Below are positions 12,304-56,620 of a stretch of DNA of 64,000 nucleotides, piece after piece. The stretch lies in the NCBI RefSeq assembly GCF_030704535.1, contig NC_081817.1, positions 28,769,001 to 28,833,000 on the forward strand, written 5' to 3'. How positions within the stretch are numbered: position 1 is the first letter of the stretch; every line of letters begins with the position of its first letter. Origin of the DNA: Vitis vinifera. Taxonomy: Eukaryota; Streptophyta; Magnoliopsida; Vitales; Vitaceae. Position numbers and translations under genes: made by a program. Below the pieces are notes generated by a model, which saw only the letters and a list, made by a program, of their open reading frames with translations, was not told the DNA's origin and did no database searches.

Positions 12304-12574
12304 CCACCATATACTGTGTGTGGGTGAAAGTTTACAATAGGACCCCTCTCTTCCAAAGCCCCTCGGCATCCCCAAACCCCAACATTGTCCCTTTCAAAGC
12401 CCAAAAAGCTACCCCAAAAGGCAAAAAGCCACGCTTGCCTTCTCGCCTTCACCAAAGCTCACAATCCAAATCAAACCAGAACTCTTCTCTTCGGATCAAG
12501 CCTATACATATATAGTCTTCCCAGTTTCAGTTTTTGTATCAGATTAAGCATTTTTTTCCTCTTTCTTGGTGTCA

Positions 12575-28400: not shown

Positions 28401-30326
28401 AGGAGTTTTCTCGGCAGGCTCTTGCTGGTCTCAACCCGTATAGCCTACAGTTGGTTACAGTATGTTCATTCTGTCAAACACTAGTAATGTAGTAGGAGAT
28501 AAGAGTCCAAACAATCCGTTTTTTCCGATCAAATTACATGAATTCAAGCCCTTCTCATGCAGGAGTGGCCCTTGAAGAGTGAACTGGATCCTGAGATCTA
28601 TGGTCCTCCAGAATCATTGATCACAGCAGAACTGATCGAGAAAGAGATCAAAGGGGTCATGACTATTGATGAGGTAACGCCCATTCTACTCCCTTGTGAG
28701 CTTGTTTAGTTGGACCCCATTTTGCCTTTGGCTCCGTTTTTGGGCTTTGTATGAGTAAGATCTTAAGGGGGTTTGAAGAACTGGTTCTGTTGTCTCTGTC
28801 ACTGCAGGCCTTGAAACAAAAGAAGTTGTTCATATTGGATTATCATGACCTTCTCTTACCTTATGTGAACAAAGTGAGGGAGATTGAAGGCACGACATTG
28901 TATGGATCTCGAACTCTGTTCTTCCTAACCATGGAGGGCACATTGAGGCCTCTTGCAATCGAGCTAACTAGGCCGCCAGTTGGTGACAAGCCGCAGTGGA
29001 AGCAAGTGTTCACACCAGGCTGGGATGCCACGAGTTGCTGGCTATGGAGGCTGGCCAAAACTCATGTTTGTGCTCATGACTCTGGTTATCACCAGCTTGT
29101 TGTTCACTGGTAAAATGATTCGAGACTCTGCTCATTGTCTATAAACCGGGCTTTTACCAATTCAACGATCAGAACAAGCTGATACCACTTGGTTGGGATT
29201 GTATTTTTTGCAGGCTAAGGACTCACTGTTGTACTGAGCCATACATCATTGCAGCTAACCGGCAACTAAGCGCTATGCACCCAATCTATAGACTCCTGCA
29301 TCCTCATCTCAGGTACACAATGGAGATCAATGCTCTTGCTCGGGAAAGCCTCATAAATGCAGGTGGAATCATTGAGAGCTGCTTCTCGCCGGGCAAGTAT
29401 GCCATTGAGCTCAGTTCTGCTGCCTATGACCAGCTCTGGAGATTTGACATGGAAGCTTTGCCTGCTGACCTGATCCGAAGGTATAGGAGATGGTTTCAAG
29501 GATATGATAAAAGATATTGTACTCTATTTGGTTACCTCTGAATCAGAATTTGTCGTTTTCTTTCAGGGGGATGGCAGTTGAGGATCCAACAGCTGAGCAT
29601 GGGCTGAAGCTCACCATTGAGGATTACCCTTTTGCCAACGACGGTCTAGTCCTTTGGGATGCCATCAAGCAGTGGGTTAGGGACTATGTGAACCACTACT
29701 ACCCAGACCCAAGCCTGGTTGAGTCTGATAAGGAGCTACAAGGTTGGTGGACCGAAGTTCGAACCAAAGGGCATGCAGACAAGAAGGATGAGCCATGGTG
29801 GCCTGTCATGAAAACCCCAGAAGATCTAATCCATGTTTTAACAACCATAATCTGGGTTACAGCAGGGCACCATGCAGCTGTGAACTTCGGTCAATATGTA
29901 TATGCCGGGTATTTCCCTAATCGGCCCACAATAGCTCGAACCAACATGCCAACTGAGGACCCATCAGATGAGGAGTTCAAGAACTTTCTGCATAAGCCAG
30001 AAATTGCCTTGTTAAAGTGCTTCCCTTCACAGATTCAAGCAACAAAAATAATGGCAGTTTTGGATGTTCTGTCAAGTCATTCACCAGATGAGGAGTACCT
30101 CGGTGACCAGATGGAGCCATCCTGGACAGAAAACCCAATCATAAAGGCTGCATTCGAACGGTTCAATGGCAGATTGAAGGAGCTTGAGGGGATCATTGAT
30201 GGGAGGAACACCAATTTGAACCTGAAGAACAGAACTGGAGCTGGGGTTGTTCCATATGAACTCTTGAAGCCATTCTCAAAACCAGGGGTCACAGGAATGG
30301 GAGTTCCTAATAGCATCTCTATCTAA
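25465..30326 (+). CDS. Type-2 13-lipoxygenase, chloroplast (LOX2-like), complete
   Basis: Nine exons: 25465-25828, 27020-27288, 27653-27890, 27968-28282, 28374-28459, 28563-28673, 28808-29109, 29214-29480, 29567-30326; 903 aa; all junctions GT-AG and in phase. Lipoxygenases oxygenate linolenic/linoleic acid; plastid 13-LOX feeds jasmonate and green-leaf-volatile synthesis. Residues 1 to about 60 are a Ser-rich transit leader. The PLAT domain spans about 90-215 and the catalytic domain the rest. Iron ligands are visible: His556 and His561 (YHQLVVHW), His753 and Asn757 ([10 protein letters not shown]), and the C-terminal Ile903 (NSISI). The ATG at 25465 is the first of three consecutive ATGs. 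Oddity: the position before His561 is Val where LOX usually has Ser. Intron 1 is about 1.2 kb and AT-rich. Exact paralog identity is not assigned. Confidence 0.95.
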
Positions 30327-31740: not shown

Positions 31741-31749
31741 TTTTTATAA
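31741..31749. repeat. MULE target-site duplication, left
   Basis: TTTTTATAA, identical to 42060-42068. Nine bases is the typical Mutator duplication length. Confidence 0.9.
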
Positions 31750-31905
31750 GGGAAAACTGATCAGAAGGGACAAAAATCCCTCAATATTGTAAAACTAACC
31801 CTCCACTTTTAATAGCCTCTAAAATGGTCCGATCTGGACAAAAATACCCCTCAGCTACATCAACTCCTTTTTCCCTCCCATTCTAATTTTATTTCCCTCC
31901 ATTCA
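31750..31905 (+). repeat. MULE left terminal inverted repeat
   Basis: Starts GGGAAAACTGATCAGAAGGG; its reverse complement is matched, with mismatches and small indels, by the right end. The inner limit is approximate. Confidence 0.85.
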
Positions 31906-32262
31906 CCTCCTTTTTATTATTTCTTCCACTTTCTCATTTTTTTCATTTTCTCCTGTTATTCCGTTTCTCTCTTTTCAGTGCATTTCTTCAAGTCTCACAC
32001 AGTTTCTCTTCAGATTTCTTCAACTTAAAGCGCTTTAAATTGTGGTTGGATAAACAGTGTACGTTTATTTTTATTTTTCCATATTTTTTTCTTTCATGTT
32101 TTATTTATTGAATATTTTCAAACATTTAATGAGATGTAGTAAATATTTAAATAAGTTTGAAATTGTTATAATTTTTTTAATATCATTTACAGCCATGAAA
32201 AAATGGATTAAAAGAAGGAAACAATCAGCTTAAAAAGTGTAGCGTGGAGAAATATTGTCTAT

Positions 32263-35200
32263 ATGGAAAAATCAAATGATGGTAAGTAATAAAACTTATG
32301 GAATTTTATGATGGTTTTGGTATTGTTTGCACATTTGTGCTTTATATAGATGTAAATATATGTGTTAATAGGGTTTTGACATAATATATAAAGTTATCTT
32401 TTTTAGTTATATATCAAAACCTTACGGATATTAAGTTGAACTTGACGTGTGTTAAGTTGAACTTGAAGTAAGTTAAGATTGTATATAGTTATTTTATAGT
32501 AACATTATATTTTTGTTATTGTATTTAATTATACTCAATTTGAGTTGAATCATTTGCAAATTAGCCTTGACATTAAATAAATTACAACATAACCAATCTT
32601 TTAGTAAACAAATATATTTTTATTGTTTAAAATAGTTTAGAGTTACAATGTCTGAATTTATTTAATAACTATATACATTGTATTTCTATATCATTATTGG
32701 TATTATTTGAGGTAGTAAAGATGATTAATAATGTTATTTATTTGTTGTTTATTAAAAAAATAAATATGTGTAATGAAATAATATGTATTTAATAATGAAT
32801 GAGTTTTTTAAAATTAATACCTACTTATTGGTGCTAATGCTATGATGTAACTAAAAAATATTCTAATATTGTTTGTTGATGCCACTAATTGAATTATTCT
32901 GTTATTTCAGTGGTTGATGAAGTAGGAATAATGTTTTTATATGAAGGAGAATGGGTACGAGATGGAAATGTTTTCTATTTCGAAGGAAGTAAAGGTAAAG
33001 GCATTGAGATCCCGAAAACTATATCATATAAAGAGTTATTAGGGGTTGTCCATCATATTTTGAAGCTAGATCCAACAAATTGTTTTCTTTCAATGAAGTA
33101 TGTATTCAATGCCAACATACCCACAAGTCCTATACAACTAACTGATGATGGGGATGTGAAATTCTTTATTGGTTTAAATTGTACAAATGGTAAGCTGCCT
33201 GTTCCATTGTGCATCACAGTTGAAAAGAGAATTGATAATCACAATCAGAAATCAATTTGCAATTCTTATTTCGAATGTCATATGTCTTCTGAGATTGATA
33301 AAGAATTGAATGAGGACTCAATGTTGATGCATAAAAGTAGACACATTCATTGTGATTCAGTTGAAACTCTTACTGTTGATGGTGAAAATGGACCAAGATT
33401 TCAAAATGAGTCACATGAAGGGTATAAAGTTCATGATTGGAACATGAATGAGACTGCAATTAATGAGGAGGATTATAGAATGAATACTAACCCTACTAGT
33501 GATAAGCAAGTGACCCAAATTGGCTCATTCAGAACTGGTTCAGCTCAGAGTGCAGAAATCTTGACCATGATTGATACAAGTGATGGGTTCATACATGACA
33601 ATCCCACTATAATCGAAGATGTAGCAAATGAAAGACAAAACATGATGCAACAACCTATAGTTAGTGGAATTAGTGATGACCATCTAGAAGAACACCAAAT
33701 TTACTCAAGTAAGAAAGAATTACAAAGGAAGTTGTATATGATGGCTCTGAAAAGGAAGTTTGAGTTCAAAACAACTAAATCCACTACTAAGTTATTGCTT
33801 GTTGAATGTTTTGATAAAGAATGCAAGTGGCGAGTTCGTGCTACCAAGTTGGGGATTTCCAATATGTTTCAAATAATGAAATTCTATTCAACACACACTT
33901 GTCGGTTAGATATGATGTCTCGTGACAATCGACATGCAAGTAGTTGGTTGATTGGTGAGAGTATAAGAGAAACATATCAAGGGATTGGTTGTGAATTTCG
34001 ACCAAAAGACATTGTAGCAGACATTCGAAAGCAGTATGGCATTCAAATCAGTTATGATAAGGCGTGGAGAGCCAAAGAACTTGCTCTAGGTTCTATTAGG
34101 GGATCACCTGAGGAGTCTTATAACACTTTACCATCCTATTGCTATGTTTTAGAGCAAAAAAATCCTGGTACCATTACTGATATAGTTACTGATTGTGATA
34201 ATCAATTCAAATACTTTTTTATGTCGATTGGTGCATCTCTTGCTGGGTTTCACACATCAATAAGGCCTGTGGTTGCAGTTGATGGGACATTTTTGAAAGC
34301 AAAGTACTTAGGGACTTTATTTATTGCAGCGTGTAAAGATGGCAACAATCAGATATACCCTTTAGCTTTTGGGATTGGTGATTCAGAAAATGATGCCTCA
34401 TGGGAGTGGTTTTTACAAAAACTACATGATGCACTTGGACACATTGATGATTTGTTTGTGATATCAGATCGACATGGTAGCATTGAGAAAGCAGTACATA
34501 AAGTATTTCCCCATGCGAGGCATGGTGTCTGCACTTATCACGTTGGACAAAATTTGAAGACAAAGTTCAAGAATCCTGCAATTCATAAGTTGTTCCATGA
34601 TGCTGCCCATGCTTATCGTGTTTCAGAGTTTAATTTTATATTTGGGCAACTAGAGATGATTGACCCAAGAGCAGCAAGATATTTGATGGATATAGGTGTT
34701 GATCGATGGGCACGTTCATATTCTATCGAAAAAAGATATAATATCATGACGACAGGGATCGTTGAAAACCTTAATGCTGTGTTGAAAAATGCTAGAGATC
34801 TTCCGGTTTTGCAATTGGTTGAAGAATTGAGAAACTTACTTCAAAAATGGTTTGTGACTCGTCAACAACAAGCAATGTCAATGTCAACTGAACTTACCAT
34901 GTGGGCTGATGGAGAACTTCGTTCTAGGTATAATATGTCAGCAACATATCTAGTGGAACCTATCAACTCCAAGGAGTGTAATGTTAACTATGCTGGCATT
35001 AGTGCTCAAGTGAATTTAGACACTCGTTCATGCACATGTCGACAATTTGATCTTGATCATATTCCATGTGCACATGCTATTGCTGCTTGTAGATTTTACA
35101 ACATTTCATGTTACACTTTGTGCTCCAAGTATTTTACTACTAAAGCATTGTTATCTTCATATTCAGAGTGTATTTATCCAACTGGAAATGAAATAGATTG

Positions 35201-35378
35201 GGTAGTACCTAATCATATTCGTGATAAAGTTGTGTTACCACCTAAAACAAGACGCCCAACAGGAAGACCAAGGAAAGTAAGAATTCCTTCTGGTGGAGAG
35301 GGCAAGCGCACATCTCGTTGTAGTCGATGTGGTCAATATGGGCATAATCGGAAAACATGCAAACGACCAATCCCTTGA
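32263..35378 (+). CDS. MURA transposase of Mutator-like element
   Basis: Two exons: 32263-32281 and 32911-35378; 828 aa. The long frame has no ATG at its 5' end, only TTG inside what reads as an intron. An acceptor TTATTTCAG at 32910 and a donor GTAAGT at 32282 join a six-codon first exon in phase, giving MEKSNDV then VDEVG. The transposase cuts element ends and inserts with a 9-bp duplication. Visible: an N-terminal PB1-like region (about 1-105), an acidic linker, a MuDR-type zinc-binding region (near FDKECKWRVRATKL and YSTHTC), the catalytic domain with VVAVDGTFLKAKY (Asp) and FVISDRHGSIEKAV (Asp), a SWIM finger (CTCRQFDLDHIPCAHAI) and a C-terminal CCHC knuckle (CSRCGQYGHNRKTC). The frame is intact, unlike most elements here. 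It converges on the protease gene. Confidence 0.93.
32430..32476. repeat. Sub-terminal AACTTGA/TTAAGTT motifs, left side
   Basis: Two or three copies of a TTAAGTTGAACTTGA phrase inside the transposase gene's intron. They share their core with the 74-bp array units and with 41045-41068 and 41205-41228. Confidence 0.5.
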
Positions 35379-35680
35379 TATCATGATAGCTTTGGCACTC
35401 TATGAACTTACATGGAATGAAAATTGTAATAGTGAGCTTTTTTGTTTTTTTGGTACCCATGTGAACAGAAATGTAAGTTACTTTTTTGTATAAGGTGATA
35501 GGATAAGCACATAGATGAATATTGTAATAATGATCCCCTTTTTTTGCATAACCATAGAAATGGAGATATTTGTTACTTTTGTACATATATGTTATGATGA
35601 GTTATGTATAAAGTATAAATGAAAATTACATGTTTATTCTCAAACTATGGACTCAACTGTTCTCACGTTTATTGATAAGG

Positions 35681-36222
35681 AACTTGACAATAGTTAAGTT
35701 CAGGTTTTGTCTGAAGACTGTGGACTTAACTACCTTCAAGTTTGTACATAAAACAACTTGACAATAGTTAAGTTCAGGTTTTGTCTGAAGACTGTGAACT
35801 TAACTACCTTCAAGTTTGTTCATAAAACAACTTGACAATAGTTAAGTTCAGGTTTTGTCTGAAGACTGTGGACTTAACTACCTTCAAGTTTGTACATAAA
35901 ACAACTTGACAATAGTTAAGTTCAGGTTTTGTCTGAAGACTGTGAACTTAACTACCTTCAAGTTTGTTCATAAAACAACTTGACAATAGTTAAGTTCAGG
36001 TTTTGTCTGAAGACTGTGGACTTAACTACCTTCAAGTTTGTTCATAAAATAACTTGACAATAGTTAAGTTCAGTTTTTGTCTGAAGACTGTGAACTTAAC
36101 TACCTTCAAGTTTGTTCATAAAATAACTTGACAATAGTTAAGTTCAGTTTTTGTCTGAAGACTGTGAACTTAACTACCTTCAAGTTTGTTCATAAAATAA
36201 CTTAACAATAGTTAAGTTCAGG
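35681..36222. repeat. Seven tandem 74-bp units, each an imperfect palindrome
   Basis: CAGGTTTTGTCTGAAGACTG (or CAGTTTTTG in later units) starts at 35701, 35775, 35849, 35923, 35997, 36071 and 36145. Within each unit AACTTGACAATAGTTAAGTT is followed, after a loop of about 20 bases, by its near reverse complement ACTTAACTACCTTCAAGTT. Units 1-4 alternate (GTGGAC with GTACAT, GTGAAC with GTTCAT), so a 148-bp dimer was the amplified unit; units 6 and 7 are almost identical. Decayed units continue to about 36440. It lies between the convergent transposase and protease genes. Confidence 0.95.
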
Positions 36223-36630
36223 TAAAAATGACAATTGTAGACACAACTTCTTATGAGTCTATAGAAGATCAACTTGATACCTGTTAAGTCCAGATTAAAT
36301 ATGTTATTCTGGAATAGATTTCGACTTAATATCTGTCAAGTTTGTTCACAGTTAACTTGATAGTAGTTAAGTTCATGTGTTCTATTAAGACTGTGGACTT
36401 AATTACCTTCAAGTTTGTACCCATAACAACTTGACAACATTGAAGTTTAGTTTAAAAGGTCAATTGTATACATAACTATCGAACAACATTCATCAAAATA
36501 TCCAAGTAGATATATCAACCTGTCCAACTACATTTATCAAAATGCCTAACTACATATATGAAGCTATCCAATTACATATAACAAACCATCCAACTACATT
36601 ATCAAAATGTGAAATATCAACATGAATTCA

Positions 36631-39600
36631 TTACATAGGCAAGTATTTCATATAAAATAACTCTGCTGCCATCTTTTCCCGAAACCAGTCCATTCGTGCA
36701 CTTGTTAATGACTTCAATGGATGGTTGTGCATTAAGTATTCAGCATATTTGATAACAAACATGCCACAATCACCACTGCATGGTACACAAATAATCAATG
36801 TTAGGGCTATTATTAAAGATTAAGTGTATAAGTTATGAAAGTAAATTTAAGATCACTTACTCATTTTCCTGTTGAGGAATATCTTGCAGCCGTTCAATTT
36901 CCCATTCTTGGTAGTTAACTTTTGTGTCACCATGAAAACCATAATATGCTATTGCATTCAATATATGCGGCAACAATTTGGCTAATGGTTTAATGGCAAC
37001 TTGCAATCTTGCATTATTATTGATGCCCATCAATGAGTCATATACGTATATAATCCTTCGATGAAGGTGGACAACTCCTAATACCCAGTGACTAGTCCGA
37101 ACATTGATAGGGACATACACAATGTCAACATCAGGCCATTTGACAGAATAAAGAGGCTGCAAACCATTGGCATAATCAATAAGGATGTCATTCTCTAGTA
37201 ATTTGAATTGGTTCCACTTCTTGCCATGCTTAATCCATCTTGCTTGAGCATTTTGCTACATAGAATAAAGTTAATATACATAAATAAATAACCAAGATCA
37301 TAAGATTCATTATTACAAAAAAATTAAAAATGTTAACTAAAATTCAAACTACACATACCCAAAACATAGTATCCACTGTGGTAAACTTTTGGGAAAAAAG
37401 ATGAGGATTTTCTATTCGCCGCTTCCGGAAAAAGAAGAAGGCAACATCAATGTGCTAACAATTACAATAAAGTAAATTAGTTATATTATTTGGTTGTAAG
37501 CTGAACATAATAATAAATAAAAATAAAAACAAAATGCATCATTTACAAACCGTGTCAGCAAGCCATGAACCATGATTAGACAGTGATTGAAACCATTTTT
37601 TATCTATATGCATGTAGTCAATGTCAATTGTGGACCTTTGACATAAAAAAAATAATAAAAACATTAGTAATTTTATAACTTGTGAAGAACACAAATTTAC
37701 AAGTATGGATGTATACAACTTACCCTTGGTCATCACTCATCCACTTTTGAAAGGACTCTAATGCTTCTTCAGAGATTGGATGCAAAGGATCAAATGAAGT
37801 TAATGGTTTCTCAATCTCTTTTCTTAGTTTCTTTCTCTTGGTGGGATCTGTAAAAGGGTGCTGTAAGATATGAGACTTTTTAATCTCAGGCCTTCGCTTA
37901 AAAATGGCAGGAGATAGATGGTGAGGTATGACATATACTGAAAACTCGCCCGACATAGTTGGGGTACCAAACAACTTGGCAATATCAATAACTGGATCAT
38001 CAATAGAGTAGTCATCTTTCAACTCTTTAGTCACGTGTTTTTCTGCAAGCTGAAGGTTTCTAGAAGCTTCCATATCAATGTTCACATCCATGGGAATGTC
38101 ATTTCTCTCCACTTCATCATCTGTAACATCCTCAAAAATTCCAGTCTGGAAATCAAAGCCCATATTGTTATCATTTTCTTTTGTACTAGATTTTCTGAAT
38201 CTAGTGTCATGCATACCGTGTTCCTCATTCGAACTCTTAACCTAAAATTGCATACACCACCCAATAATAATAAATATGAGAAAACACAAATGTCAAAACA
38301 TTGAAGTATTAGAAAATTTAAACAAGTAAACATGTCACTAACTTCTAATAAAAGTTGTTTCAATTCATCCATCTTCAAGTTGAGTCCTTCAATTTCTTTC
38401 TTTAGATGATTGAAATTTAACTCTGAGCTTTGTCTGAATTTCACAAACTCCATCCATAATTTCTGCACATATTGCACATAAATGAAATAAAAATTTAACA
38501 CTTACAATATTTATATATATATTATGACAAGTTTGTTCACTTTGTGATTACTACCAAAAAGTGCTATTTTGTAGACCTAATTATAATGGTTTTAAGCACC
38601 TTTGAGTAGTAATCATATTCATTTAACCCAATTAATTCATTAAGGTCCTTAGTAATTGGTTTTAACCATTTTGTGGCAAGTTTACATGTTTTTATCAGCT
38701 TATGAACCAATTCAAGCATGCCAATTGTTGGAGGAGCTACTTGGGCGAGTTAAGCAAGGATTTTGTACGTTTATAGGCTTGAATTTCAAGTGGAAACACG
38801 AGCACAAGCAATGGAGAAGAGGAAAACAGAGTGAAGAAAACAGCTGCAGTCTTCTTTCGAACTTTTGAGGCACTTCCCGAAGTCCAATTTTTGCATGTTA
38901 TATACCATTTGAAAGCTTAGGAAGTCAAAAATCCAACGCTTCAAACCGTGTATGATTTGGAGCTGAAATGAGGAAGATATGGCCTTCGGAAGACAACTGC
39001 ATCATGTCAAATGGCCAATTTCGCAAGGTGAATTTCACATTGCGAAAATTTCGCAATGGGATTTTCTTCATGGTGCGAAATTTTGCCATTTCGCACCATG
39101 AAGAGCCACATTGCGAAAATTTCGCAAGGGGATTTTCTTCATGGTGCGAAATTTTGCCATTTCGCACCATGAAGAAACACATTGCGAAAATTTCGCAAGG
39201 AGGATTAGGCACATTGCGAAATTCCTTTGAATCCCCTGTTTTGAGACATTGTTGATGTTATTCCACTACCGGTTCTCCAAGATATTTTGCTTGATTTTTA
39301 GCTTTGTAAATACCTATTTTACCCTTGTAATCAACCAATGAATAGGTTGCTTTTGTAATAGCTCTTGTTTATTTATAGTTAAGGTCAGGTTCCACATGTT
39401 AATTATGGAATGAACATCTTATATTAAATAAAGTACCAAAAAAAAAAAAACATGCATGCATTATTTATGATGGCTAAGTTTAGTTTAAGTTACCTCTATT
39501 GATGGGGTGATTGCATCATTTGTTGTTTCTTCTGCCATTGCAGCAGTAGCAGCAGCAACATATGCAGCAGTGTCAGATGAGCTTTTTTCATGCCTTAAGT

Positions 39601-41553
39601 CATCATTCTTGGCATCTTGTGAGGCATTTGATTGGTGCAACATTTCTGCTGAAGCTCCTTGTTTATCTACATGCTTGTAATAGTCTTGTTGTTGCTCCTC
39701 TAAAGTGGGTGTTAGAAGCGAATGAAAAGTTAACTACAAAGTCCAAATCAAATATAATTATTAATAAACAACAATACAATAATATTTATAATTGCATTCT
39801 TAAAATGTAAAGGTAAAGAATTACTTACATGAGGCTCTAGAAATACATTTTCAACCTCAGTAGACCTTGGAGCACTTGTTGCACTCCAATTTAATATTCG
39901 AGGATACCTCTCAGATACACGAGTGGCATATTTCAATCCAATAAGTGGAATAGCCTCGTATGCCCAAACCTGGAATGCATATGGAAATCCAACAAGACTA
40001 TATGCTTCAACTGCAGCTTCTCCCTTTGTTTTCTTTTTATCTTGGTATTTGGATACCCGGTTCTCCAAAGCTCTTTGCAAACCAAATAGTGTCCTCTCAT
40101 AACAAATCCCCCCCCCCCTCTCCCCATGGATACTTGTTAAAAGCCTCCAAATTATCAACCAAAGCAACCCATTCCATATCTATCAAATTTTTTCCTTCTT
40201 TCCCAAATAAAACATGCTCTAAAAAATACAAAAGTGCCAACTTTATCACCTCTTCATCTTCAAATCCTTTTTTTTTATTTTTCTTATTCTTTTTCTTTTT
40301 CTTTTCCTCTCCTAAAGAAAGAAAAACTTTCTCCAACTCATCATTACGCACCTTGTTTTCTCCTTTAAAGTATGTGTCCCTTATTCGTAATGATTTTTTA
40401 TCACATTTTGTAATAGGACCAAAACTCAAGCCCGTAATCAATGCAAACTCTTCTTTACTAAATCTTAAGCCCTTTGACTTTAATAAAATCCATACTTCAT
40501 TGTCTTTTTTGGTTTCACATTGACGTAACAACAATTGATGAACAATTTGGGCTGAAAATCTAAGTTCGGGAAGGAGTAAAAAATGACCAAAACATGATTT
40601 TCTAAACATCTCCAATTGTGGTTCAGTCAATTTCTTCTTAATATTTTCAATGGCTACCAAGTGAGACAAACATGCAATTTTTCCAGGAAAGTACTCCTCT
40701 TTAGATATTTTAGATATAAAAGATAGGAGAGGAGGAGGAATGTCAATCTGCAAAATAATAACAAATTGTAAAAATATCAATATAAATTGAGCAAAATTAT
40801 ATTACCAAACTTATCCAACTATGTTAAATCCATCATTTTGTATTACTTCTTAACATAGACTTTATTTTCCTATTATTTAAGGATGTCGTGTCAAATGCTA
40901 ATATTCTAAAGATATTATTTTACTAATGCAATTGAAGCTATTATATTTTAGTAAGTTGCAGCTACAAAAAATTGGAGACATTATTCTAGTGTTTATTGAA
41001 ATTTGAAACAAAACAAAACCATTTTGAAATTGCAACCTGACAATGAACTTGATAGCAGTTAAGTTCAGTTTCTTCTTAACATATATATTTAAATCAAAAT
41101 TCTAAATATTTGGATAAAATAATTTTACAAAAATTATATTCAAATACGTTATAAATTCATAACAAATAACTTCATTACACAAAATTTCAAAACCTTTTGA
41201 TGGTAAACTTGATAGTAGTTAAGTTTAGTTTTTTCTAATAATTCAAATATTGCTTTAAACCTTGGACTATAACCTCACTGAGAAAATTTCCAACAATTAG
41301 ATTATCAATTCATGAAAAATAAATTCACAAAAAAAAATCTATTAAAAATGATAAAATTAAAAAAAAAATTAAAAATCAAAATTTCAAGTAGACAATTAAT
41401 GCTTACTGAATCAGTTGATTTCTTCTCATTTTCTGATGACGATGAAGAGGTTTCAAAACCTGGCTTTCTTTCACTTCTCTTTTTTCCCAAAATTTTATAC
41501 CTCTTCTGTTTCGTATTTTTCATCACAGAATTTTTTTCTTCCTCCATTTTCAT
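36631..41553 (-). CDS. MULE-borne DUF1985 / Ulp1 (C48) protease-like gene, one frameshift
   Basis: Nine exons in transcription order: 41553-41407, 40747-39829, 39733-39494, 38462-38343, 38241-37724, 37635-37551, 37454-37359, 37255-36861, 36775-36631. Joined phases agree except for one extra base in a G11 tract at 40108-40118. Allowing for it, the product is about 887 aa. Domains: basic Ser-rich N-terminus; DUF1985-type domain (about 55-290); Ala/Glu-rich linker; coiled-coil-like segment (436-475); C-terminal Ulp1-type cysteine protease with His764 (SHWVLGV), Asp781 (VYDS) and Cys843 (GDCGMF). This family cleaves SUMO or SUMO-like substrates; the role in transposons is unknown. As written, translation would stop just after the G tract. 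Start: first ATG after a possible acceptor, so an upstream exon cannot be excluded. Gene body confidence is high, individual exon edges moderate. Confidence 0.8.
38545..39440 (+). mobile_element. Repetitive insertion within intron of the Ulp1-like gene
   Basis: The intron between 38463 and 39493 is much longer than its neighbours and holds about 0.9 kb of different composition, ending in an A13 run near 39437. No coding domain is seen. It may be a solo LTR or small retroelement; ends were not fixed and no clean target duplication was found. Confidence 0.45.
39039..39200. repeat. 71-bp tandem repeat made of two palindromes
   Basis: ATTGCGAAAATTTCGCAA occurs at 39039, 39110 and 39181. Between these lies CTTCATGGTGCGAAAT, then TTTGCC, then the perfect 16-base reverse complement. 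So each unit has a small and a large hairpin. Confidence 0.92.
41045..41228. repeat. Sub-terminal AACTTGATAG(C/T)AGTTAAGTT motifs, right side
   Basis: Two copies (41045-41068 and 41205-41228) of the same motif that forms the arms of the 74-bp units. Here they lie in the first intron of the protease gene. Confidence 0.6.
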
Positions 41554-41830
41554 GAACTGAATCAACACACAATATCAGAAAGATGAAAAATCGGGTTTGA
41601 TTAAAAGAAAAAAATAAGAACCAAAATAAGACACTTACGGTTTCTTCTCATTTCATGGATGAAGATTCATATATACAGTTCGAAAAACCAAAATCAAAGA
41701 ATGAAACAGTGAAACTTACTTTCTGTTTTTTCTTTGTATTGTGTTGCCTTTTTGTTCTCTTGCAATAAACGGAAAAATCCTTCGTGATTTCTTTCTCGCA
41801 GGTTAACAGATGGAACAAATGGGTTTGCAG

Positions 41831-41930
41831 GGTAACGAAGAGACACAATACAAGAGAAAATTGGAGTTGGAGGGAAAAAGGGTAACGAAGAGACACAATA
41901 CAAGAGAAAATTGGAGTTGGAGGGAAAAAG
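41831..41930. repeat. Perfect 2x50-bp tandem duplication at right MULE end
   Basis: 41831-41880 and 41881-41930 are identical, beginning GGTAACGAAGAGACACAATA. The second copy overlaps the inner part of the right terminal inverted repeat. Confidence 0.95.
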
Positions 41931-42059
41931 GGCTGAAAAAGATAACTGAGGGGGTGAGGGGGTATTTTTGTCCGAATTGGGTCATTTTTGAGACCTAAAT
42001 AAGTAAAGGGTTAGTTTTGCAATATTGAGGGATTTTTGTCTCTTTTAATCGGTTATCCC
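41900..42059 (-). repeat. MULE right terminal inverted repeat
   Basis: Reverse complement begins GGGATAACCGATTAAAAGAG and matches the left end with mismatches; GACAAAAATCCCTCAATATT is shared exactly. Confidence 0.85.
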
Positions 42060-42068
42060 TTTTTATAA
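42060..42068. repeat. MULE target-site duplication, right
   Basis: TTTTTATAA, identical to 31741-31749. Confidence 0.9.
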
Positions 42069-44648: not shown

Positions 44649-47394
44649 TCAAGCTAGAAGACCAATTAAAGTTGCGCACAGCTTCAACTTCTCAATAGTG
44701 ACACCCTTAGTCAACATGTCTGTCGGGTTCTTAGATTCACAAATCTTCTCAAGTATTACCACTTTATCTTCAACAAGATAACAGATAAAGTGGTATTTTG
44801 TTTGTATATGCTTCAACTTTGAATGAAAAGCCGAATTTTTGGCAAGAAAAATTGCACTCTGACTGTCACTATGTAAAATGTCCATCTCCTGCTTCTTACC
44901 CAATTCATCTAAGAAACCATGTAGCCAAATCATCTCATTTCCAGTTTCAGTTGCTGCAACATACTCAGCTTCTGTGGTAGAAAAAGTAACAATCTTCTGT
45001 AGATTTGAAGCCCATGATATAGCTGTACCACCTAGAGTAAAAACAAACCTAGTGGTACTTTTTCTACTATCAATATCACCAGCAAAATCAGCATCTACAT
45101 AACCTTGCAATTTCAAACTTGCACCTATGAAGCAAAGACATGTATCTAATGAACCCTTCAGATATCTTAGAATCCACTTGACTGCCTCCCAATGCTGCTT
45201 TCCAGGCCTACTCATGAATTTGCTCACAACTCCCACTGCATGTGCAATGTTTGGCCTTGTACACACCATAACATACATCAAGCTGCCAATAGCTGAGGCA
45301 TAGGGCACCTTGCTCATATGGTCCATTTCTTCTTCTGTCTTCGGTGACTGTTCTTTGCTTAGTTTGAAATGACTACCCAAGGGTGTGCTCACTGGTTTAG
45401 CTTCATTCATGTTGAACCTACTGAGAACTTTCTTCACATACTTTGACTGTGAAAGCTTCAATGTACCATTAGCCTTGTCTCTAATCATTCTCATACCAAG
45501 GATTTGTTTTGCAGCTCCCAAATCCTTCATTGCAAACTGTTTGGACAATTGCTTCTTCAGATTATTAATTTTCTCAATGTCAGACCCTGCAATAAGCATA
45601 TCATCCACATACAACAGAAATATGATGTAAGAATTGTCAAAGGACTTAACATAGCAACAGTGATCAGCTTCACATCTCTTGAACCCAATTCTATGCATAA
45701 AATCGTCAAACTTCTTGTACCACTGTCTAGGAGCTTGTTTAAGGTCATACAAGCTTTTTCTTAGTTTGCAGACTAGATTATCTTGTCCCTGAACAATGAA
45801 CCCTTCTGGTTGAATCATGTAAAGGTCTTCCTCCAAGTCACCATGAAGGAATGTTGTATTCACATCTAACTGCTCAAGATGTAAGTTTTCTGCAGCCACC
45901 ATTCCCAGTGCAAGTTGATTGTTGACATCTTCACAACTGGAGAAAATATCTCTGTGTAATCAATGCCCTCCTTCTGCTAGAACCCTTTAACAACTAATCT
46001 GGCCTTGTAACGTTTCCTACCATCATGCTCATTCTTTATTCTGTATACCCACTTGTTGTGCAAAGCCTTCTTTCCTACTGGCAATTCAGTCAGTTCCCAT
46101 GTCTGATTCCCTAACAGGGAATCCATCTCATCCTTCATGGCTAACTCCCACTTGCTTGAATTCTCATCTTACAAGGCTTCATCATAACACTCTAGCTCAC
46201 CACCATCAGTCAACAAGAGATAATTTAAAACAGGTGAATAACGCTGCGGAGGTCTAATGTTCCTGGAAGATCTACGAACTTCAGCTATAGGTGTACTCAG
46301 ATCTACCTGTGAATTTACATTCTCCTTATCTTCTTCACCCCCTTTTTAGACAGTACTTTTAGTCAATTCATCTAAGTTGACAAACTCAGATTTCTTTTGA
46401 TCTATCTCTGTAACATCTGACACTACAGTTAACCTGTCCTTGTACATAACATGTTCATTAAATATCACATTTCTACTTCTGATGATTTTCCTGTTTTGTT
46501 CATCCAAAAACCTATAACCAAATTTCTCATCACCATAGCCAATGAAAAAACATATTTTTGACTTTGCATCAAGTTTACTACGAGCATGAGAATCAATATG
46601 AACATAAGAAACACAACAAAAAACTTTTAAATGTGAAAACTTCACCTCTTTACCGCTCCAAATCTCCTCAGGAAGTCTGAACTCCATGGGAACTGATGGT
46701 CCTCGGTTTATCAAGTAAGGTGCAGTGCTAACAGCATCAGCCCAAGAAGTTTTTGGTAGTCCAACATGGAACCTCATACTTCTAGCACGCTCATTGAGAG
46801 TTCTATTCATGCGCTCAGCCACACCATTCTGTTGTGGTGTCCCAAGAATAGTCTTCTCCATCCTAATTCCCTGTGCAGCACAATACTCACTGAACCCTCC
46901 ATCTATGTACTCTTCTCCATTATCTGACCTCAAACATTTTACTTTCAAACCTGTTTCTGTCTCAACCATGACCTTCCACTTCTTAAAAGTTTCAAATACA
47001 TCAGATTTATTTTTTAGAAAATAAATTCATATCTTTCTGCTTGAGTCATCAATAGAAGTGATGTAGTACCTTGAACCTCCCAGGGATGCAACCAGAGAAG
47101 GCCCCCACAAATCAGTGTGTACTAGTTCCAATTTTTCAGCCTTCGGTGTCCTGCCAGTTTTCAAAAAACTCACATTTTTTTGCTTTCCTAAGATGCAACT
47201 TTCACACATGTCAAATCAATGGACTTCAATTCTGGTAGTTTTCGTTTTGACAATAGCATCTTCATCTCTTTCTCACTCATGTGACTAAGTCTGCGGTGCC
47301 ATAGACTTGTATCAGTACTTGCATTAGCAACTGCAATTGTGTCTCTTGGACTTGAGGTCATATACAGAGTACCAGTCTTCTTTCCACGAGCCAA
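44649..47394 (-). pseudogene. Copia pol: integrase and reverse transcriptase/RNase H, broken
   Basis: Pieces in order on the minus strand: pre-integrase zinc domain (LWHRRLSHMSEKEM, then CESCILGKQ), integrase core (VHTDLWGP, then PQQNGVAERMNRT), and the reverse transcriptase (45902-44649, 417 codons open) with QLDVNTTFLHGDLEEDLYM, the catalytic FLLYVDDMLI and the RNase H region with VDADFAGD and STTEAEYVA. Frame breaks lie between 47394 and 46969 and between 46346 and 45902. The RT part alone remains uninterrupted and keeps catalytic residues. Confidence 0.9.
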
Positions 47395-48963: not shown

Positions 48964-51900
48964 TTTGTGCATGAATTATGAAATAGTCTTACTTGCCGGA
49001 CGATACAGCAAGCGGGTTGAAGAAGCTAAGGGAGATAGAGTTGGAGAATCTGCGCGGAAATGGAAAGGGAGAACGCAAGACGTCTGATAAGATCTATGAT
49101 TACGACACTTACAATGACCTTTGGGATCCTGATGATAGTAAGGATCTTGCCCGTCCCATTCTTGGCGGACAGGATCATCCTTACCCTAGGAGATGCAGAA
49201 CCGGGCGTCCTAGTTCCAAGAAAGGTATGTAATGAGTGGTATTATTTATGTATTATGTTTTGCCCATTAATTTATTTGAAGTTTTGAGCTGATTGATGTA
49301 GACCCGTTGTCGGAGACGAGAAGCAGCAGTGTGTATGTGCCAAGGGATGAAGCATTTGAAGAAGTGAAGCAGATGACATTCTCGACGAAGACGCTGAAAT
49401 CAGTGCTGCACGCGCTGCTACCTCAGGTGGAGATCATGCTGCTGGATCCACACCTTGTATTTCCCTACTTCACTGCCATAGACTTACTGTTTCAAGGAGT
49501 CCCTTTGCCCAAGAGCAAGAACTTCTTTCAGTCAATCATCCCAAGACTAGTGAAGACCATAGCTGAAGGAGAAGGAGATATTTTGCTCTTTGAAACCCCT
49601 GCAATGATCGACAGTATGCCTGATCTCTTCCTTGCTTCCTCTTCTCTTCTTGAGATGGATCGAGTCGTTGATGAATCAGTGTTCTTCTGTTGCAGGAGAT
49701 AAATTTGCTTGGTTTAGGGATGAGGAGTTTTCTAGGTAGACTCTTGCTGGTCTCAACCCGTATAGCCTTCAGTTGGTTTCAGTATGTTCATTCTGTCAAA
49801 CGCATGAGTAATGTAGTAGGAGATAAGAGTCCAAACAATCCATTTTTTCCAATCAGTTTACATGAATTCAAGCCTATGGTCCATGCCTTCTCCTGCAGGA
49901 GTGGCCCTTGAAGAGTAAACTGGATCCTGGGATCTATGGTCCTCCAGAATCATTGATCACAGCAAAACTGATCGAGAGAGAGATCAAAGGGGTCATGACT
50001 ATTGATGAGGTAACGCCCATTCTACTCCCTTGTAAGCTTGTTTAGTTGGACCCCATTTTGCGTTTAACTCGGTTTTTGGGCTTTGTATGACTAAGATCTT
50101 AAGGGGGTTTGAAGAACTGGTTCTGTTGTTGTGTGTCACTGCAGGCCTTGAAACAGAAGAAGATGTTCATATTGGATTATCACGACCTTCTCTTACCTTA
50201 TGTGAACAAAGTGAGGGAGATTGAAGGCACTACATTGTATGGATCTCGAACTCTGTTCTTCCTAACCATGGATGGCACATTGAGGCCTCTTGCAATCGAG
50301 CTAACTAGGCCGCCAGTTGGTGACAAGCTGCAGTGGAAGCAAGTGTTCACACCAGGCTGGGATGGCACAAGTTGCTGGCTATGGAGGCTGGCTAAAGCTC
50401 ATGTTTGTGCTCATGACTCTGGTTATCACCAGCTTGTTCACTGGTAAAATGATTTGAGACTCTGCTCATTGTCTATAAACCGGGCTTTTACCAATTCAAC
50501 AATCAGAACAAGCTGAAACCACATGGTTGGGATTGTATTTTTTGCAGGCTAAGGACTCACTGTTGTACTGAGCCATACATCATTGCAGCTAACCGGCAAC
50601 TAAGCGCTATGCACCCAATCTATAGACTCCTGCATCCTCATTTCAGGTACACAATGGAGATCAATGCTCTTGCTCAGGAAAGCCTCATAAATGCAGGTGG
50701 AATCATTGAGAGCTGCTTCTCGCCAGGCAAGTATGCCATTGAGCTCAGTTCTGCTGCCTATGACCGGCTCTAGAGATTTGACATTGAAGCTTTGCCTGCT
50801 GACCTGATCCGAAGGCATAGGAGACAGTTTCAACGATATGATAAAAGATATTGTACTCTATATGGTTACCTCTGAATCAGAATTTGTCGTTTTCTTTCAG
50901 AGGAATGGCAGTTGATCCAACAGCTGAGCATGGGCTGAAGCTCACCATGAAGGATTACCCTTTTGCCAACGACGGTCTAGTCCTTTGGGATGCCATCAAG
51001 CAGTGGGTTAGGGACTATGTGAACCATTACTACCCAGACCCAAGCCTGGTTGAGTCTGATAAGGAGCTACAAGGTTGGTGGACAGAAGTTCGAACCAAAG
51101 GGCATGCAGACAAGAAGGATGAGCCATGGTGGCCTGTCATGAAAACCCCAGAAGATCTAATCCATGTTTTAACAACCATAATCTGGGTTACAGCAGGGCA
51201 CCATGCAGCCGTGAACTTCGGTCAATATGTATATGCCGGGTACTTTCCTAATCGGCCCACAATAGCTCGAACCAACATGCCAACTGAGAACCCATCAGAT
51301 GAGGAGTTCAAGAACTTTCTGCATAAGCCAGAAATTGCCTTGTTAAAGTGCTTCCCTTCACAGATTCAAGCAACAAAAGTGATGGCAGTTTTGGATGTTC
51401 TGTCGAGTCATTCACCAGATGAGGAGTACCTCGGTGACCAGATGGAGCCATCCTGGACGGAAAACCCAATCATAAAGGCTGCATTTGAACGGTTCAATGG
51501 CAGATTGAAGGAGCTTGAGGGGATCATTGATGGGAGGAACACCAATTTGAACCTGAAGAACAGAACTGGAGCCGGGGTTGTTCCATATGAACTCTTGAAG
51601 CCATTCTCAAAACCAGGGGTCACAGGAATGGGAGTTCCTAATAGCATCTCTATCTAAATTATGATGCTACACTGCATCGTAAAATAGCTAATATAAATAA
51701 GCATATCTAGATTCCATGTCTCGAGAACTTCCAACATTCTTACCATGTCTTTTGCCTCAATGGAAGGTAGTTTGTCGAATCTTATGAAATCTAATTTATT
51801 TACTTACAAATGTTCAACAAGTTATGCCATGTCTGAAACAGAAACTAAACCTGGGAAAAAACTGAAACAGGGCATTTAGACAACAAAGGGAAAGAAGTAC

Positions 51901-53967: not shown

Positions 53968-56382
53968 TCAGAGAATTGAGTTAAAATTCTGACCTTGTAA
54001 CCTCCAAGGCGTTTAAGGGGCAGAGGCCTGCAAGCTTTCTTTCATGGTAAGTCATGTTTGATCTAGCAGTTAGGAGCTCGGGTCTTAGTTTCCTCTCATT
54101 GTTTATTATCTCATCATACTGAGAGCTCAAACCAGGAAGACAACCTGTTCTCACCCATACATCCTTTTCCATTCGTAGATGAAGGGCAAGGTAAGGTCCT
54201 TTGCTCCTCATCCTCTCTGCCATTTTGTTACCGAGTTCCAAAATTGGCTGCGAGAACCTCAATGCATGAAAAGCCACCTACAATCAAGCAAGATGAGGTA
54301 AAGAACAAGAACAAAATCAGGAAAATATAGAAGGGAAGAACACTGCTTGCTAGGATAAAGCTAGACTCTCATGAATTATTTGAGAAATATTTGCAATAAA
54401 CAGGAAATTCCTTATGATGATAAGGGATTGTTGTATAAAATCTAAGACATTTTCAAAATTCCAGAAAATATTCTGTGCTCATCCCAATTATGAAGTTCTT
54501 TGGCTCTGCAAGCCCTAGGTTCTCCCAATGGAAAGGCGTGAATATCAAACAAAATTGAACATCAAAACTAAAATGAAACCCCACAAATACCTTGCATCGA
54601 AGCTTCTGAAGATCAGAAGGGAGATCCTTAGAAAGCCTTGAATCCAACCCACGTAGAAGCAAAACCCCTTCCCTCCTAAGCTGCAGAAACCAACAGAAAA
54701 TAACATCACCATAACTTCTAAATGAATAAAAATATTTCTATTTTAAGCAGCAGCAAAATCTTTTACTGATGGAAACTTTGACTGGAAAATTTCTAGGAAA
54801 ATTATTCCTCTGAAAAGGACAATCCATCCACCAGCTACAAACATTTACTAACTACAAGAATTTAACCAATGACTGAAACAGACAGCCCATAAGCTGATCA
54901 AGTCCATTACAAAAATAGAACCATTTCAACAGCTCAAACTCTTAACTGTCCCCCCATATTACTGAAACTGAAAATTCAGTAAAACATGGATGGCGGCTTG
55001 AGACTTGACCAATTCGATGTTTCCCTAACTACCAGAATACAACATTTCTAGAGCTCAAAATATACCTGGGGCAACAACGCCAACAAGGCCCACAACAAAG
55101 CTCAGCCTCTATGATACCAATATTGAATTGTGGGCCATTTATGCCTAATCACAAACTAACACCATTAAGGACCTCTTGTCTGCTCTCCTACATTTTCTGC
55201 TTTACTTACTATATCAACGGTTCACATGAAAATCATCCACGAAGAAACCAAAGTGGATACTTCAAAGGAGAAAAGGAAAAGGAAGCAATGGCCCTTACCC
55301 TTTTGAGGTACCGTGCACGGATCCATTGAGGAGAGACATGAAGTGGCGTTCTCTTCTCCTCTACCGGCCTTGACATCAGATGCGTGGACGGCAATGATGA
55401 AACTATTCTCACATCATTGGCCAGAACTCTCTTGAAATGCTCCATATCAAATATATCAGAAAATTCACTACAACCCAAACAACAAAAGAACAAAAGGGGA
55501 AAAACCAAATAAGCAATCACATCTATGAAACAGTCAAAGAACTGAACAGAGTTAATTGAGATTAGCTATAATGCAAAAATGGGCATTTTGTGGATTGAAC
55601 CACAATGAAATAATTGGATTCATTGAGCCAAAATGACAAACAATCATGAAACTAAACCAAAAAATGGTACTAACTATGAAGGCATTGAAAACGGGTGTTT
55701 GATAAATTGAATCAAAATGGTAATAGATGCTTGAATCAAACAAACTTAAAATTATGGTTGAAAGAAAAAAAAATCAAAGGAAAGATGTGCTGTTCAGTGT
55801 TCTTCTTCTTTACCTTTCATCACCCCAAATGACGTTGACTTGCAGGATGGGAACAACCAGAGCAGCGCCGAGAATTCTGGCAATCACAACGGCGTCAACT
55901 ATCTGATTCCTCTGCTGATTCATCCCACCTGAGACTACCACCATCAAATACTTGGTCCTGTCCTCCACAATCTCCAGGCTCGTCTTCTTATACTCTTTGC
56001 TGAACTCCAAACACGGTCTGTACCCCAACCCATCAGGCTGCTCCCAGAACTCACTCTTTTCCCCATCTTCCTTAACACCCAGATGAGAACTCAACGACCC
56101 AGCAGAGACTATCCCCTGGGACTGGGTAATACCACAAGGGTTTGGCGAGAAGGGGATCAAAGGCTCGAGATTGAACCCCATTTTCAGCATGGCTATGAAG
56201 CCAAAAAGAAAGAAAGCAAGGAACCAGAGCCTTGGGTTCTTGAACAAGAAAGAAAAGAACTTGCTTGAGCTCCTGGAGGACTTCTTGGGGGAGACAAGCA
56301 GAGACTGAAGGGAGGAAGAAGAAAGAGAGTTGATTATTTGTGAAGGCACAGAGATGTAAGAGACTTTCTTTGATTTAGCCAT
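52933..56382 (-). CDS. GDP-fucose protein O-fucosyltransferase family protein, complete
   Basis: Six exons in transcription order: 56382-55814, 55467-55299, 54680-54591, 54277-53994, 53850-53592, 53172-52933; 536 aa; all introns GT-AG and phases agree. Plant members of this family (OFT, formerly DUF246) are Golgi type II membrane proteins that transfer or are presumed to transfer fucose; the acceptor here is unknown. Features: cytosolic Ser/Lys-rich N-terminus (1-50), one membrane anchor (about 51-67, LWFLAFFLFGFIAMLKM), donor-binding SGGMNQQRNQIVDAVVIARI (151-170), ALHLRMEKDVW in exon 4, IYWAGGQPFGGEE and FIPSHGGNMGHAIQGHRAY in exons 5-6. The start is the first ATG, with stops upstream. The paralog is not identified. 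The frame is intact. Confidence 0.93.
53281..53580. repeat. 163-bp tandem duplication in OFT intron 5
   Basis: AAGGTATTGAAA at 53281 and 53444 opens two similar units with TTTTTGGCAAGTTTT, CCATA..TGTGAATTAT and GTTGGAGCTGAAAATGATGG-like phrases. It is intronic and non-coding. Confidence 0.8.
53935..53968. repeat. Compound (TA)n(CA)n microsatellite in OFT intron 4
   Basis: About 11 TA units followed by about five CA units, close to the donor of exon 4. Confidence 0.9.
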
Positions 56383-56620
56383 TGTAAGATAGAAAACAGA
56401 GGCTCTTGCTCAGTTGGTTTCTCCAGAGCTGGGAGAGAGAGGTTTTAGAGAGAGAGAAAATGGGGTTCAGAGGTCAGAGTAGGCCGCGGGAACACGAAAA
56501 CCGAGCCAATACGCGTTGGGAAGAAGAAGAAAAAAGAGAGATAGAGGAAGCAGGGGGGGCAGAGACAGAGGTGTCTCTTCTGGACCGTTTTGGGTTTGGG
56601 TTTTGGGTTTTGAAAAGTGG

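What the first reader, a model, noticed from the sequence alone, without database searches (positions are those of the whole stretch)
31741..42068. Near-intact Ulp1-carrying MULE with perfect 9-bp target duplication
Seen: terminal inverted repeats, target duplication, open MURA frame with DDE-type motifs, SWIM and CCHC fingers, and a nine-exon protease gene with His-Asp-Cys residues all present. Established: Ulp1-type genes recur in plant MULEs, role unknown. The convergent two-gene layout with retained catalytic residues suggests the protease serves the transposon.
Basis: partly seen in the sequence, partly recalled or inferred. Interest (0 to 1): 0.72.

Follow-up and report, generated by a model that had tools for sequence, protein, structure and literature searches.

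The report
Transposon protease with candidate target repeats
A recently active grapevine-like jumping gene carries, besides its transposase, a SUMO-protease-like gene kept by natural selection, and rows of a palindromic DNA word that look like the landing sites through which that protein could protect the element from being silenced.

Summary
A Mutator-like element lies at 31750-42059, with TIRs and a perfect 9-bp duplication. It has an intact 828-aa transposase gene and a convergent nine-exon DUF1985 + Ulp1 (C48) gene. One correction: in this copy exon 2 of the protease gene is out of frame at a poly-G run. The genome scan shows 40 copies at 93-100% over the 5' end; of 21 read in full, 19 have perfect duplications. 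Both genes are open in 2 of 10 young copies. Against four related loci (two groups, 55-59% identical), the protease gene has dN/dS 0.19-0.26; the transposase has 0.24-0.37 against three. So it is a working part of the element, not a dead capture.

Non-coding parts carry arrays of a dyad, AACTTAAC-N4-GTTAAGTT, spaced mostly 32 and 41-42 bp (7 helical turns per unit). The four related loci and two gene-free mini-elements share it. Genome-wide there are 1000 exact strand matches against 2 for the reversed control. DUF1985 plus such repeats matches the VANC/KIU anti-silencing systems of Arabidopsis. Best reading: the protein binds the dyads and lifts silencing, perhaps by deSUMOylation. Binding and demethylation are untested. 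It is a new variant of a known kind.

The parts
31741..31749 (.). left 9-bp target site duplication TTTTTATAA
42060..42068 (.). right 9-bp target site duplication TTTTTATAA
31750..31850 (+). left terminal inverted repeat (begins GGGAAAACTGATC)
   Evidence: (I1), alignment
41959..42059 (-). right terminal inverted repeat
   Evidence: (I1), alignment
32263..32281 (+). MURA exon 1 (ATG; inferred from splice signals)
32911..35378 (+). MURA exon 2: DBD_Tnp_Mut, MULE domain, SWIM finger, C-terminal CX2CX4HX4C (the last by eye)
32418..32479 (.). three dyads (21-bp spacing; 3, 1 and 3 mismatches) in the inferred MURA intron 1
35681..36447 (.). intergenic dyad array: 74-bp unit, 19 dyads AACTTAAC-N4-GTTAAGTT at <=3 mismatches; the TRF-defined core is 35681-36223
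41046..41225 (.). two more dyads (2 mismatches each) in intron 1 of the protease gene
41407..41553 (-). protease gene exon 1
39829..40747 (-). protease gene exon 2: DUF1985 (PF09331); this copy frame-shifted at the poly-G run 40108-40118
39494..39733 (-). protease gene exon 3 (linker)
38544..39367 (.). about 820 bp of filler in intron 3, present in the window copy and its nine close relatives, in place of about 60 bp in the four older full-length copies
   Evidence: BLAST joints; base by base for window against L024 only
38343..38462 (-). protease gene exon 4 (linker)
37724..38241 (-). protease gene exon 5 (linker)
37551..37635 (-). protease gene exon 6 (start of the C48 domain)
37359..37454 (-). 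protease gene exon 7 (C48)
36861..37255 (-). protease gene exon 8 (C48: catalytic His, Asp, Gln)
36631..36775 (-). protease gene exon 9 (C48: catalytic Cys; stop)

Best explanation
This is a recently active TIR-type Mutator-like element that encodes its own anti-silencing factor. The minus-strand DUF1985-Ulp1 protein is inferred to bind, probably as a dimer, the palindromic dyads AACTTAAC-N4-GTTAAGTT that lie as phased arrays in the element's non-coding DNA. The arrays put the dyads on about one face of the helix. Bound there, its Ulp1 domain would strip SUMO from silencing proteins, so that methylation is lost and the convergent MURA gene is expressed. It would act in trans on every element carrying the array, including deletion derivatives and gene-free mini-elements. 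Shown here: the anatomy, selection on the gene, and the array's sequence, spacing, non-coding location, presence in two other related groups, association with the gene in the stretch examined, and retention in derivatives. Inferred: binding, the SUMO step, demethylation.
For: Protease-gene dN/dS 0.19-0.26 against four related loci, with the C48 domain at 0.12-0.22 and DUF1985 at 0.19-0.20 in the two loci where it could be computed. DUF1985 (6e-22) plus C48 (7e-36) in one 884-aa spliced frame of L012. Dyad: 26 sites in the window at <=3 mismatches, 25 inside the element, against 0.83 expected for the whole window by shuffling. Genome-wide exact AACTYRAC-N4-GTTAAGTT 485+515 against 1+1 for the reversed-pattern control (palindromic sites count on both strands). 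In the listed stretch all 11 Ulp1 exon-8 loci have dyads nearby (by eye), and 5 of 5 examined clusters without such a hit are derivatives of Ulp1-bearing elements. All four related loci have a 73-74-bp-type array, lying between the transposase and protease genes in three. 0 of 103 dyads touch coding sequence. Spacings mostly 32 and 41-42, mean cosine 0.81 at 10.5 bp, n=88 spacings between 15 and 170 bp. Gene-free L043 keeps 8 dyads. VANC proteins have DUF1985 and bind short motifs in non-coding tandem repeats (PMC5735166 passages). KIU-carrying Vandals are reported to do likewise (review PMC13317346 passages).
Against: No binding, expression or methylation data. The control 'transposase relatives without Ulp1 lack the array' did not complete by the tool (last try). 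No DUF287 hit, although VANC proteins have one. TIRs are long, whereas VANDAL TIRs are degenerate (PMC10398659 passage). PMC6117577 holds KIU unlikely to act on SUMO (passage). The four related loci form only two groups (L039/L042, 78% identical in the protease; L040/L041, 84% in C48), share arrays by descent, and tandem duplication copies spacings, so independent observations are few. The dyad was defined on these sequences with <=3 mismatches, which favours conserved half-sites. L039 has Tyr at the catalytic His. The gene is broken in 11 of 14 full-length copies.
Confidence: 0.58

Rival explanations
1. The dyad array is a binding site of the MURA transposase or a transposition enhancer, and the Ulp1 protein helps transposition in another way, for example by acting on MURA.
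For: Mini-element L043 keeps TIRs, 5' end sequence and array, and L046 resembles it, as a transposition signal would. The array lies next to the transposase gene in 3 of 4 related loci.
Against: In the window element the array is central, about 4 kb from the nearer end, and further dyads lie in introns of the Ulp1 gene in the window element, L039 and L042, and 5' of its exon 2 in L041. Transposases of MuDR type are known for binding the TIRs (recalled).
Confidence: 0.19
2. The array is a non-protein signal: an RNA hairpin, a small-RNA source or a terminator between the convergent genes.
For: It lies between convergent genes; each dyad could fold as an 8-bp stem with a 4-nt loop; tandem repeats can be siRNA sources (PMC10398659 passage).
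Against: No sign of compensatory change: 4 double changes, 2 of them Watson-Crick, against 11.5 expected if independent, and 117 single changes that break a pair (the <=3 mismatch limit lowers doubles). Dyads also occur in introns.
Confidence: 0.11
3. The Ulp1 gene is a captured host gene carried passively (transduplication).
For: Benjak 2008 reads grapevine ULP sequences in MULEs as repeated transduplication, or as frequent loss (PMC2528002 passages). Deletion derivatives without most of the gene still moved, with their own duplications. The gene is broken in 11 of 14 full-length copies. Within-family singletons look neutral.
Against: dN/dS 0.19-0.26 against related loci, as low as the transposase; catalytic four kept in 13 of 14 copies. 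All seven deletion derivatives read also have a broken transposase, so they were probably moved in trans and say nothing about need for the gene.
Confidence: 0.05

Closest known systems
VANC anti-silencing systems of Arabidopsis VANDAL elements (VANC21, VANC6; Fu 2013, Hosaka 2017, Sasaki 2022)
   Same: MULE with a second gene holding DUF1985; short motifs repeated in tandem in non-coding parts, including introns of the second gene and upstream of the transposase gene (PMC5735166 passages).
   Different: Ulp1 domain present and no DUF287 hit; long TIRs; the motif is a 20-bp dyad shared by three lineages with proteins 53-64% identical, where VANDAL target repeats are said to diverge rapidly (PMC10398659 abstract); function untested here. 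Fu 2013 and Sasaki 2022 were seen only as citations.
Kaonashi / KIU elements (KI-MULE, Hoen 2006)
   Same: C48 gene in reverse orientation to the transposase gene inside a MULE (described in PMC2528002); reported anti-silencing of KIU-carrying Vandals (review PMC13317346 passage).
   Different: KI-MULEs are non-TIR elements of Arabidopsis; this one has TIRs of about 110 bp and sits in a grapevine-like genome. Hoen 2006 itself was not seen.
Grapevine Mutavine MULE families with ULP regions (Benjak 2008, PMC2528002)
   Same: Same kind of genome by size and contig number (inferred); ULP in both orientations, in TIR and non-TIR families; 9-bp duplications.
   Different: No anti-silencing role or repeat array is mentioned in the passages and section read; which Mutavine family this is was not established.
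Maize MuDR (MURA + MURB)
   Same: Convergent two-gene MULE (recalled).
   Different: MURB is unrelated to Ulp1 (recalled); no comparison was run.

Membership tests
Mutator-like element (MULE) | MULE transposase domain | tested here: met
   PF10551 9.1e-21
Mutator-like element (MULE) | 9-bp target site duplication | tested here: met
   window 9/9; 19 of 21 copies 9/9
Mutator-like element (MULE) | terminal inverted repeats | tested here: met
   112 nt, 79%
Ulp1/SENP peptidase (C48) | C48 signature with catalytic His-Asp-Gln-Cys | tested here: met
   PF02902 7.2e-36 in sister copy L012, 1.1e-18 for exon 8 of the window copy; alignment to SENP1; 13 of 14 copies keep all four
Ulp1/SENP peptidase (C48) | cleaves SUMO or another ubiquitin-like protein | not testable with these tools
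   needs biochemistry
Kaonashi/KIU MULE | C48 gene opposite to the transposase gene in a MULE | tested here: met
Kaonashi/KIU MULE | non-TIR element (KI-MULE in the strict sense) | tested here: not met
   long TIRs
VANC-type anti-silencing system | DUF1985 in the second gene | tested here: met
   PF09331 7.7e-23 (window), 5.6e-22 (L012)
VANC-type anti-silencing system | DUF287 | tested here: not met
   no hit at E<=1 in the one full-length protein scanned; HMMER filters can drop weak matches
VANC-type anti-silencing system | short motif in non-coding tandem repeats | tested here: met
VANC-type anti-silencing system | the protein binds the motif and removes methylation from carriers | not testable with these tools
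   needs EMSA, ChIP and bisulfite data
VANC-type anti-silencing system | array absent from MULE families without the gene | not tested
   the genome search with the transposase did not complete (last)

The most novel reading that the evidence does not exclude
A single palindromic address, AACTTAAC-N4-GTTAAGTT phased at seven helical turns per unit, is shared by at least three grapevine-like MULE lineages whose proteins are only 53-64% identical, and by gene-free mini-elements. If so, one working DUF1985-Ulp1 copy could lift silencing from all of them at once: a common anti-silencing code kept by selection, rather than the rapidly diverging private codes described for Arabidopsis VANDALs, with targeted deSUMOylation as the effector.
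Probability: 0.28. Interest if true: 0.7.

Novelty: new variant of a known kind. Interest (0 to 1): 0.52.

Why it matters
The function of the Ulp1 domain in plant transposons is still called unknown in a 2026 review (PMC13317346 passage). Here the gene shows constraint as strong as the transposase's, and a concrete 20-bp candidate target comes with it. That turns 'role unknown' into one binding assay and one methylation comparison. If right, it extends VANC/KIU-type anti-silencing to TIR elements of a woody crop, offers a sequence-specific demethylation module, and explains why gene-free derivatives keep the array.

Tried and rejected
Passive capture: spoken against by dN/dS with related loci. 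RNA hairpin for the dyad: not supported. Clean transposon insertion in intron 3: not supported; it looks like filler replacing about 60 bp. Reading the deletion derivatives as proof that the protease is dispensable: rejected, because their transposase genes are broken too. Within-family N/S test: inconclusive. ULP 107N/39S singletons against 13N/11S shared plus fixed, p=0.09; MURA 105/27 against 10/5, p=0.32 (14 copies). Before those counts were dropped: sites in the two homopolymer tracts of ULP exon 2, sites with more than two states, sites present in under 70% of copies, and inserted bases. Structure of the DUF1985 part from a single sequence: mean pLDDT 36, not used. No target duplication was found for L044 and L045 or L046 and L047 in the searches made. 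The dyad clusters next to Ulp1 loci were counted by eye from the listings, not by script.

Full report
Observation. The element runs from 31750 to 42059 with the perfect 9-bp duplication TTTTTATAA on both sides. Its ends form an inverted repeat of 112 nt at 79%. The plus-strand gene reads as a 19-nt first exon plus a long second exon, 828 aa, open, with MULE transposase, MuDR DNA-binding and SWIM domains. The minus-strand gene has nine exons bounded by GT and AG. It encodes DUF1985 in exon 2 and a C48 peptidase domain in exons 6-9, with the catalytic His, Asp, Gln and Cys in a stretch that aligns to SENP1. One correction: in this copy a poly-G run in exon 2 (40108-40118) puts the rest of the gene out of frame.

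The genome. The window lies in a 495.6-Mb assembly of 21 contigs, at C13:28769001-28833000. Size, contig number and nearby lipoxygenase genes suggest grapevine; that is inference. The 5' end has 40 matches at 93-100%, the window's own included, and one at 78%; only the best candidates are scored, so this is a lower bound. I read 20 of the 39 other copies in full, the 20 nearest by 5' end. Of 21 copies with the window's own, 19 have perfect duplications.

State of the copies. Ten full-length copies, called young here, differ by 0.41% on average over the first 3.9 kb. The transposase is open in 9 of these 10, the protease gene in 3 of 10, both in 2 of 10. All seven broken protease genes among the young have a length change in a poly-G or a poly-A tract of exon 2; some have further breaks (L010 an earlier stop, L011 a one-base loss in exon 3, L014 a changed acceptor). 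In the four older full-length copies both genes are broken. Seven deletion derivatives keep the transposase region but lost most of the protease gene; five share one deletion, and all seven have a broken transposase frame. Sixteen rows of the exon-8 search cover exactly residues 52-132, as expected for that deletion class; five of them were confirmed by sequence.

Selection. Within the family, singleton changes look neutral in both genes, as expected after insertion, and older changes are too few to decide. Four related loci were fetched, chosen for an open exon 8. They form two groups: L039/L042 (78% identical in the protease) and L040/L041 (84% in the C48 domain). Their Ulp1 genes are 55-59% identical to ours over the codons compared, with dN/dS 0.26 (L039), 0.19 (L040, C48 only), 0.19 (L041) and 0.22 (L042). 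Three carry a transposase gene at 57-64% with dN/dS 0.37, 0.35 and 0.24; L039 shows none in the 10 kb read. The C48 domain gives 0.12-0.22 in the four. DUF1985 gives 0.20 and 0.19 in L039 and L042; in L041 synonymous sites are saturated and in L040 it was not aligned. Saturation makes these values approximate. Closer pairs give higher values: L039-L042 0.74 and L040-L041 0.52 for ULP, L040-L041 0.80 for MURA, as expected when decaying copies are compared. The catalytic four are kept in three of four loci; L039 has Tyr for His.

The dyad array. Between the two genes lies a 74-bp tandem array. Its core is a dyad of two 8-bp half-sites with exactly 4 nt between them, AACTTAAC-N4-GTTAAGTT. At up to 3 mismatches the window holds 26, of which 25 lie inside the element, against 0.83 expected in the whole window. 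Further dyads lie in the inferred intron 1 of MURA and in intron 1 of the protease gene. All four related loci have a comparable array: periods 73, 74/148, 73/146 and 73/219 among the rows found. In the five elements 0 of 103 dyads touch coding sequence (for the relatives coding means tblastn pieces, so unaligned exons are not covered). Spacings are mostly 32 and 41-42 bp, three and four helical turns. Pairs 32 bp apart also occur outside the arrays: in an intron of the Ulp1 gene in L039 and L042, and 5' of its exon 2 in L041. Half-site positions carry 0.9-1.9 bits, the central four and the flanks 0.1-0.9. The definition of the dyad favours this, but the repeat-finder units and the genome-wide exact count do not depend on the mismatch limit. 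The 21 copies of the family hold 17-29 dyads each and none in the flanks read.

Genome-wide. The exact pattern AACTYRAC-N4-GTTAAGTT occurs 485 + 515 times against 1 + 1 for the reversed pattern. Sites with a fully palindromic core count on both strands. Only the first 100 places were listed: C1, C2 and C3 up to 8.49 Mb. By eye they form 21 clusters. Eleven lie next to the 11 Ulp1 exon-8 loci of that stretch, so 11 of 11 such loci have dyads. Of the other ten clusters I read five, and all five are derivatives of Ulp1-bearing elements. L043 is a gene-free element of 1.40 kb with inverted repeats, an 8/9 duplication and 8 dyads. L046 resembles it (88-92% over pieces) and shows no gene match in the 3 kb read. 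L044 and L047 resemble L041, and L045 resembles L039/L042; these three keep remnants of both genes. Five clusters were not read: C1:6367084, C1:20395548, C1:27647542, C3:3711740 and C3:5888840.

Mechanism. In Arabidopsis, VANC proteins of VANDAL MULEs have DUF1985 and DUF287. VANC21 binds YAGTATTAY, and VANC6 targets AGTTGTCC/AGTTGTAC; these motifs form tandem repeats in non-coding DNA, for VANC21 upstream of the transposase gene and in introns, and the proteins cause loss of methylation (PMC5735166, passages). A review says that Ulp1-bearing VANC genes (KIU) likewise act on motifs in KIU-bearing elements, citing Sasaki 2022, and that the function of the Ulp1 domain is unknown (PMC13317346, passages). 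I could not open Sasaki 2022; from recall its abstract names DUF1985, DUF287 and Ulp1 as gained and lost domains, and motif sequence, density and helical periodicity as determinants. The anatomy here fits: DUF1985 as the likely aiming part, Ulp1 as the likely effector, the dyad array as the address. Shown: anatomy, selection, array, association in the stretch examined, retention in derivatives. Inferred: binding, deSUMOylation, demethylation. The test that would best separate this from transposase binding, a genome search with the transposase, did not complete (last).

What is known. ULP sequences in grapevine MULEs, in both orientations and in TIR and non-TIR families, were reported in 2008 and read as transduplication (PMC2528002, passages and section 8). 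KIU elements are described in PMC6117577 (passages), which holds them unlikely to act on SUMO. A search for Vitis + VANC + anti-silencing listed seven papers, none with grapevine VANC in its title; one is the MULE survey PMC6446971, whose two VANC passages concern Arabidopsis. Mutavine occurs in one paper. So a VANC-like reading of grapevine ULP-MULEs and this dyad were not found in those searches, but Sasaki 2022 covers eudicots by its title and could contain it. Verdict: real, well supported, a new variant of a known kind.

Noticed in passing
29511-30326 and 50845-51657: Two similar lipoxygenase C-terminal reading frames (Pfam 1e-115 and 2e-112) lie on either side of the element.
   Followed up: no
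44652-45959 and 46349-47026: Reverse transcriptase (RVT_2, Copia-type by recall) and integrase-region pieces just outside the element.
   Followed up: no
exon 2 of the protease gene, window 40108-40118 and 40268-40305: A poly-G and a lysine-coding poly-A tract change length from copy to copy; all seven broken young protease genes have such a change. The G run reaches 27 in L019.
   Followed up: partly
38544-39367: About 820 bp of filler replaced about 60 bp in intron 3 of the young lineage; all four older full-length copies (L019, L020, L023, L024) have a dyad in that region that the young ones lack.
   Followed up: partly
L043:2163-3565 and L046: Gene-free mini-elements with 5' end sequence and dyad array like the L039/L042 group; TIRs were shown for L043.
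   Followed up: partly
41829-41932: A perfect 50-bp tandem duplication near the 3' TIR. A 10-nt core of it occurs twice in the window copy and L009-L016, once in L017 and in the older copies, and once or not at all in the deletion derivatives.
   Followed up: partly
G000:C13:28716633: A copy of the shared-deletion class (by its exon-8 row) lies about 84 kb from the window's element on the same contig.
   Followed up: no
12548-13150 and 55810-56409: Reading frames with partial tetrapyrrole methylase and O-fucosyltransferase matches.
   Followed up: no
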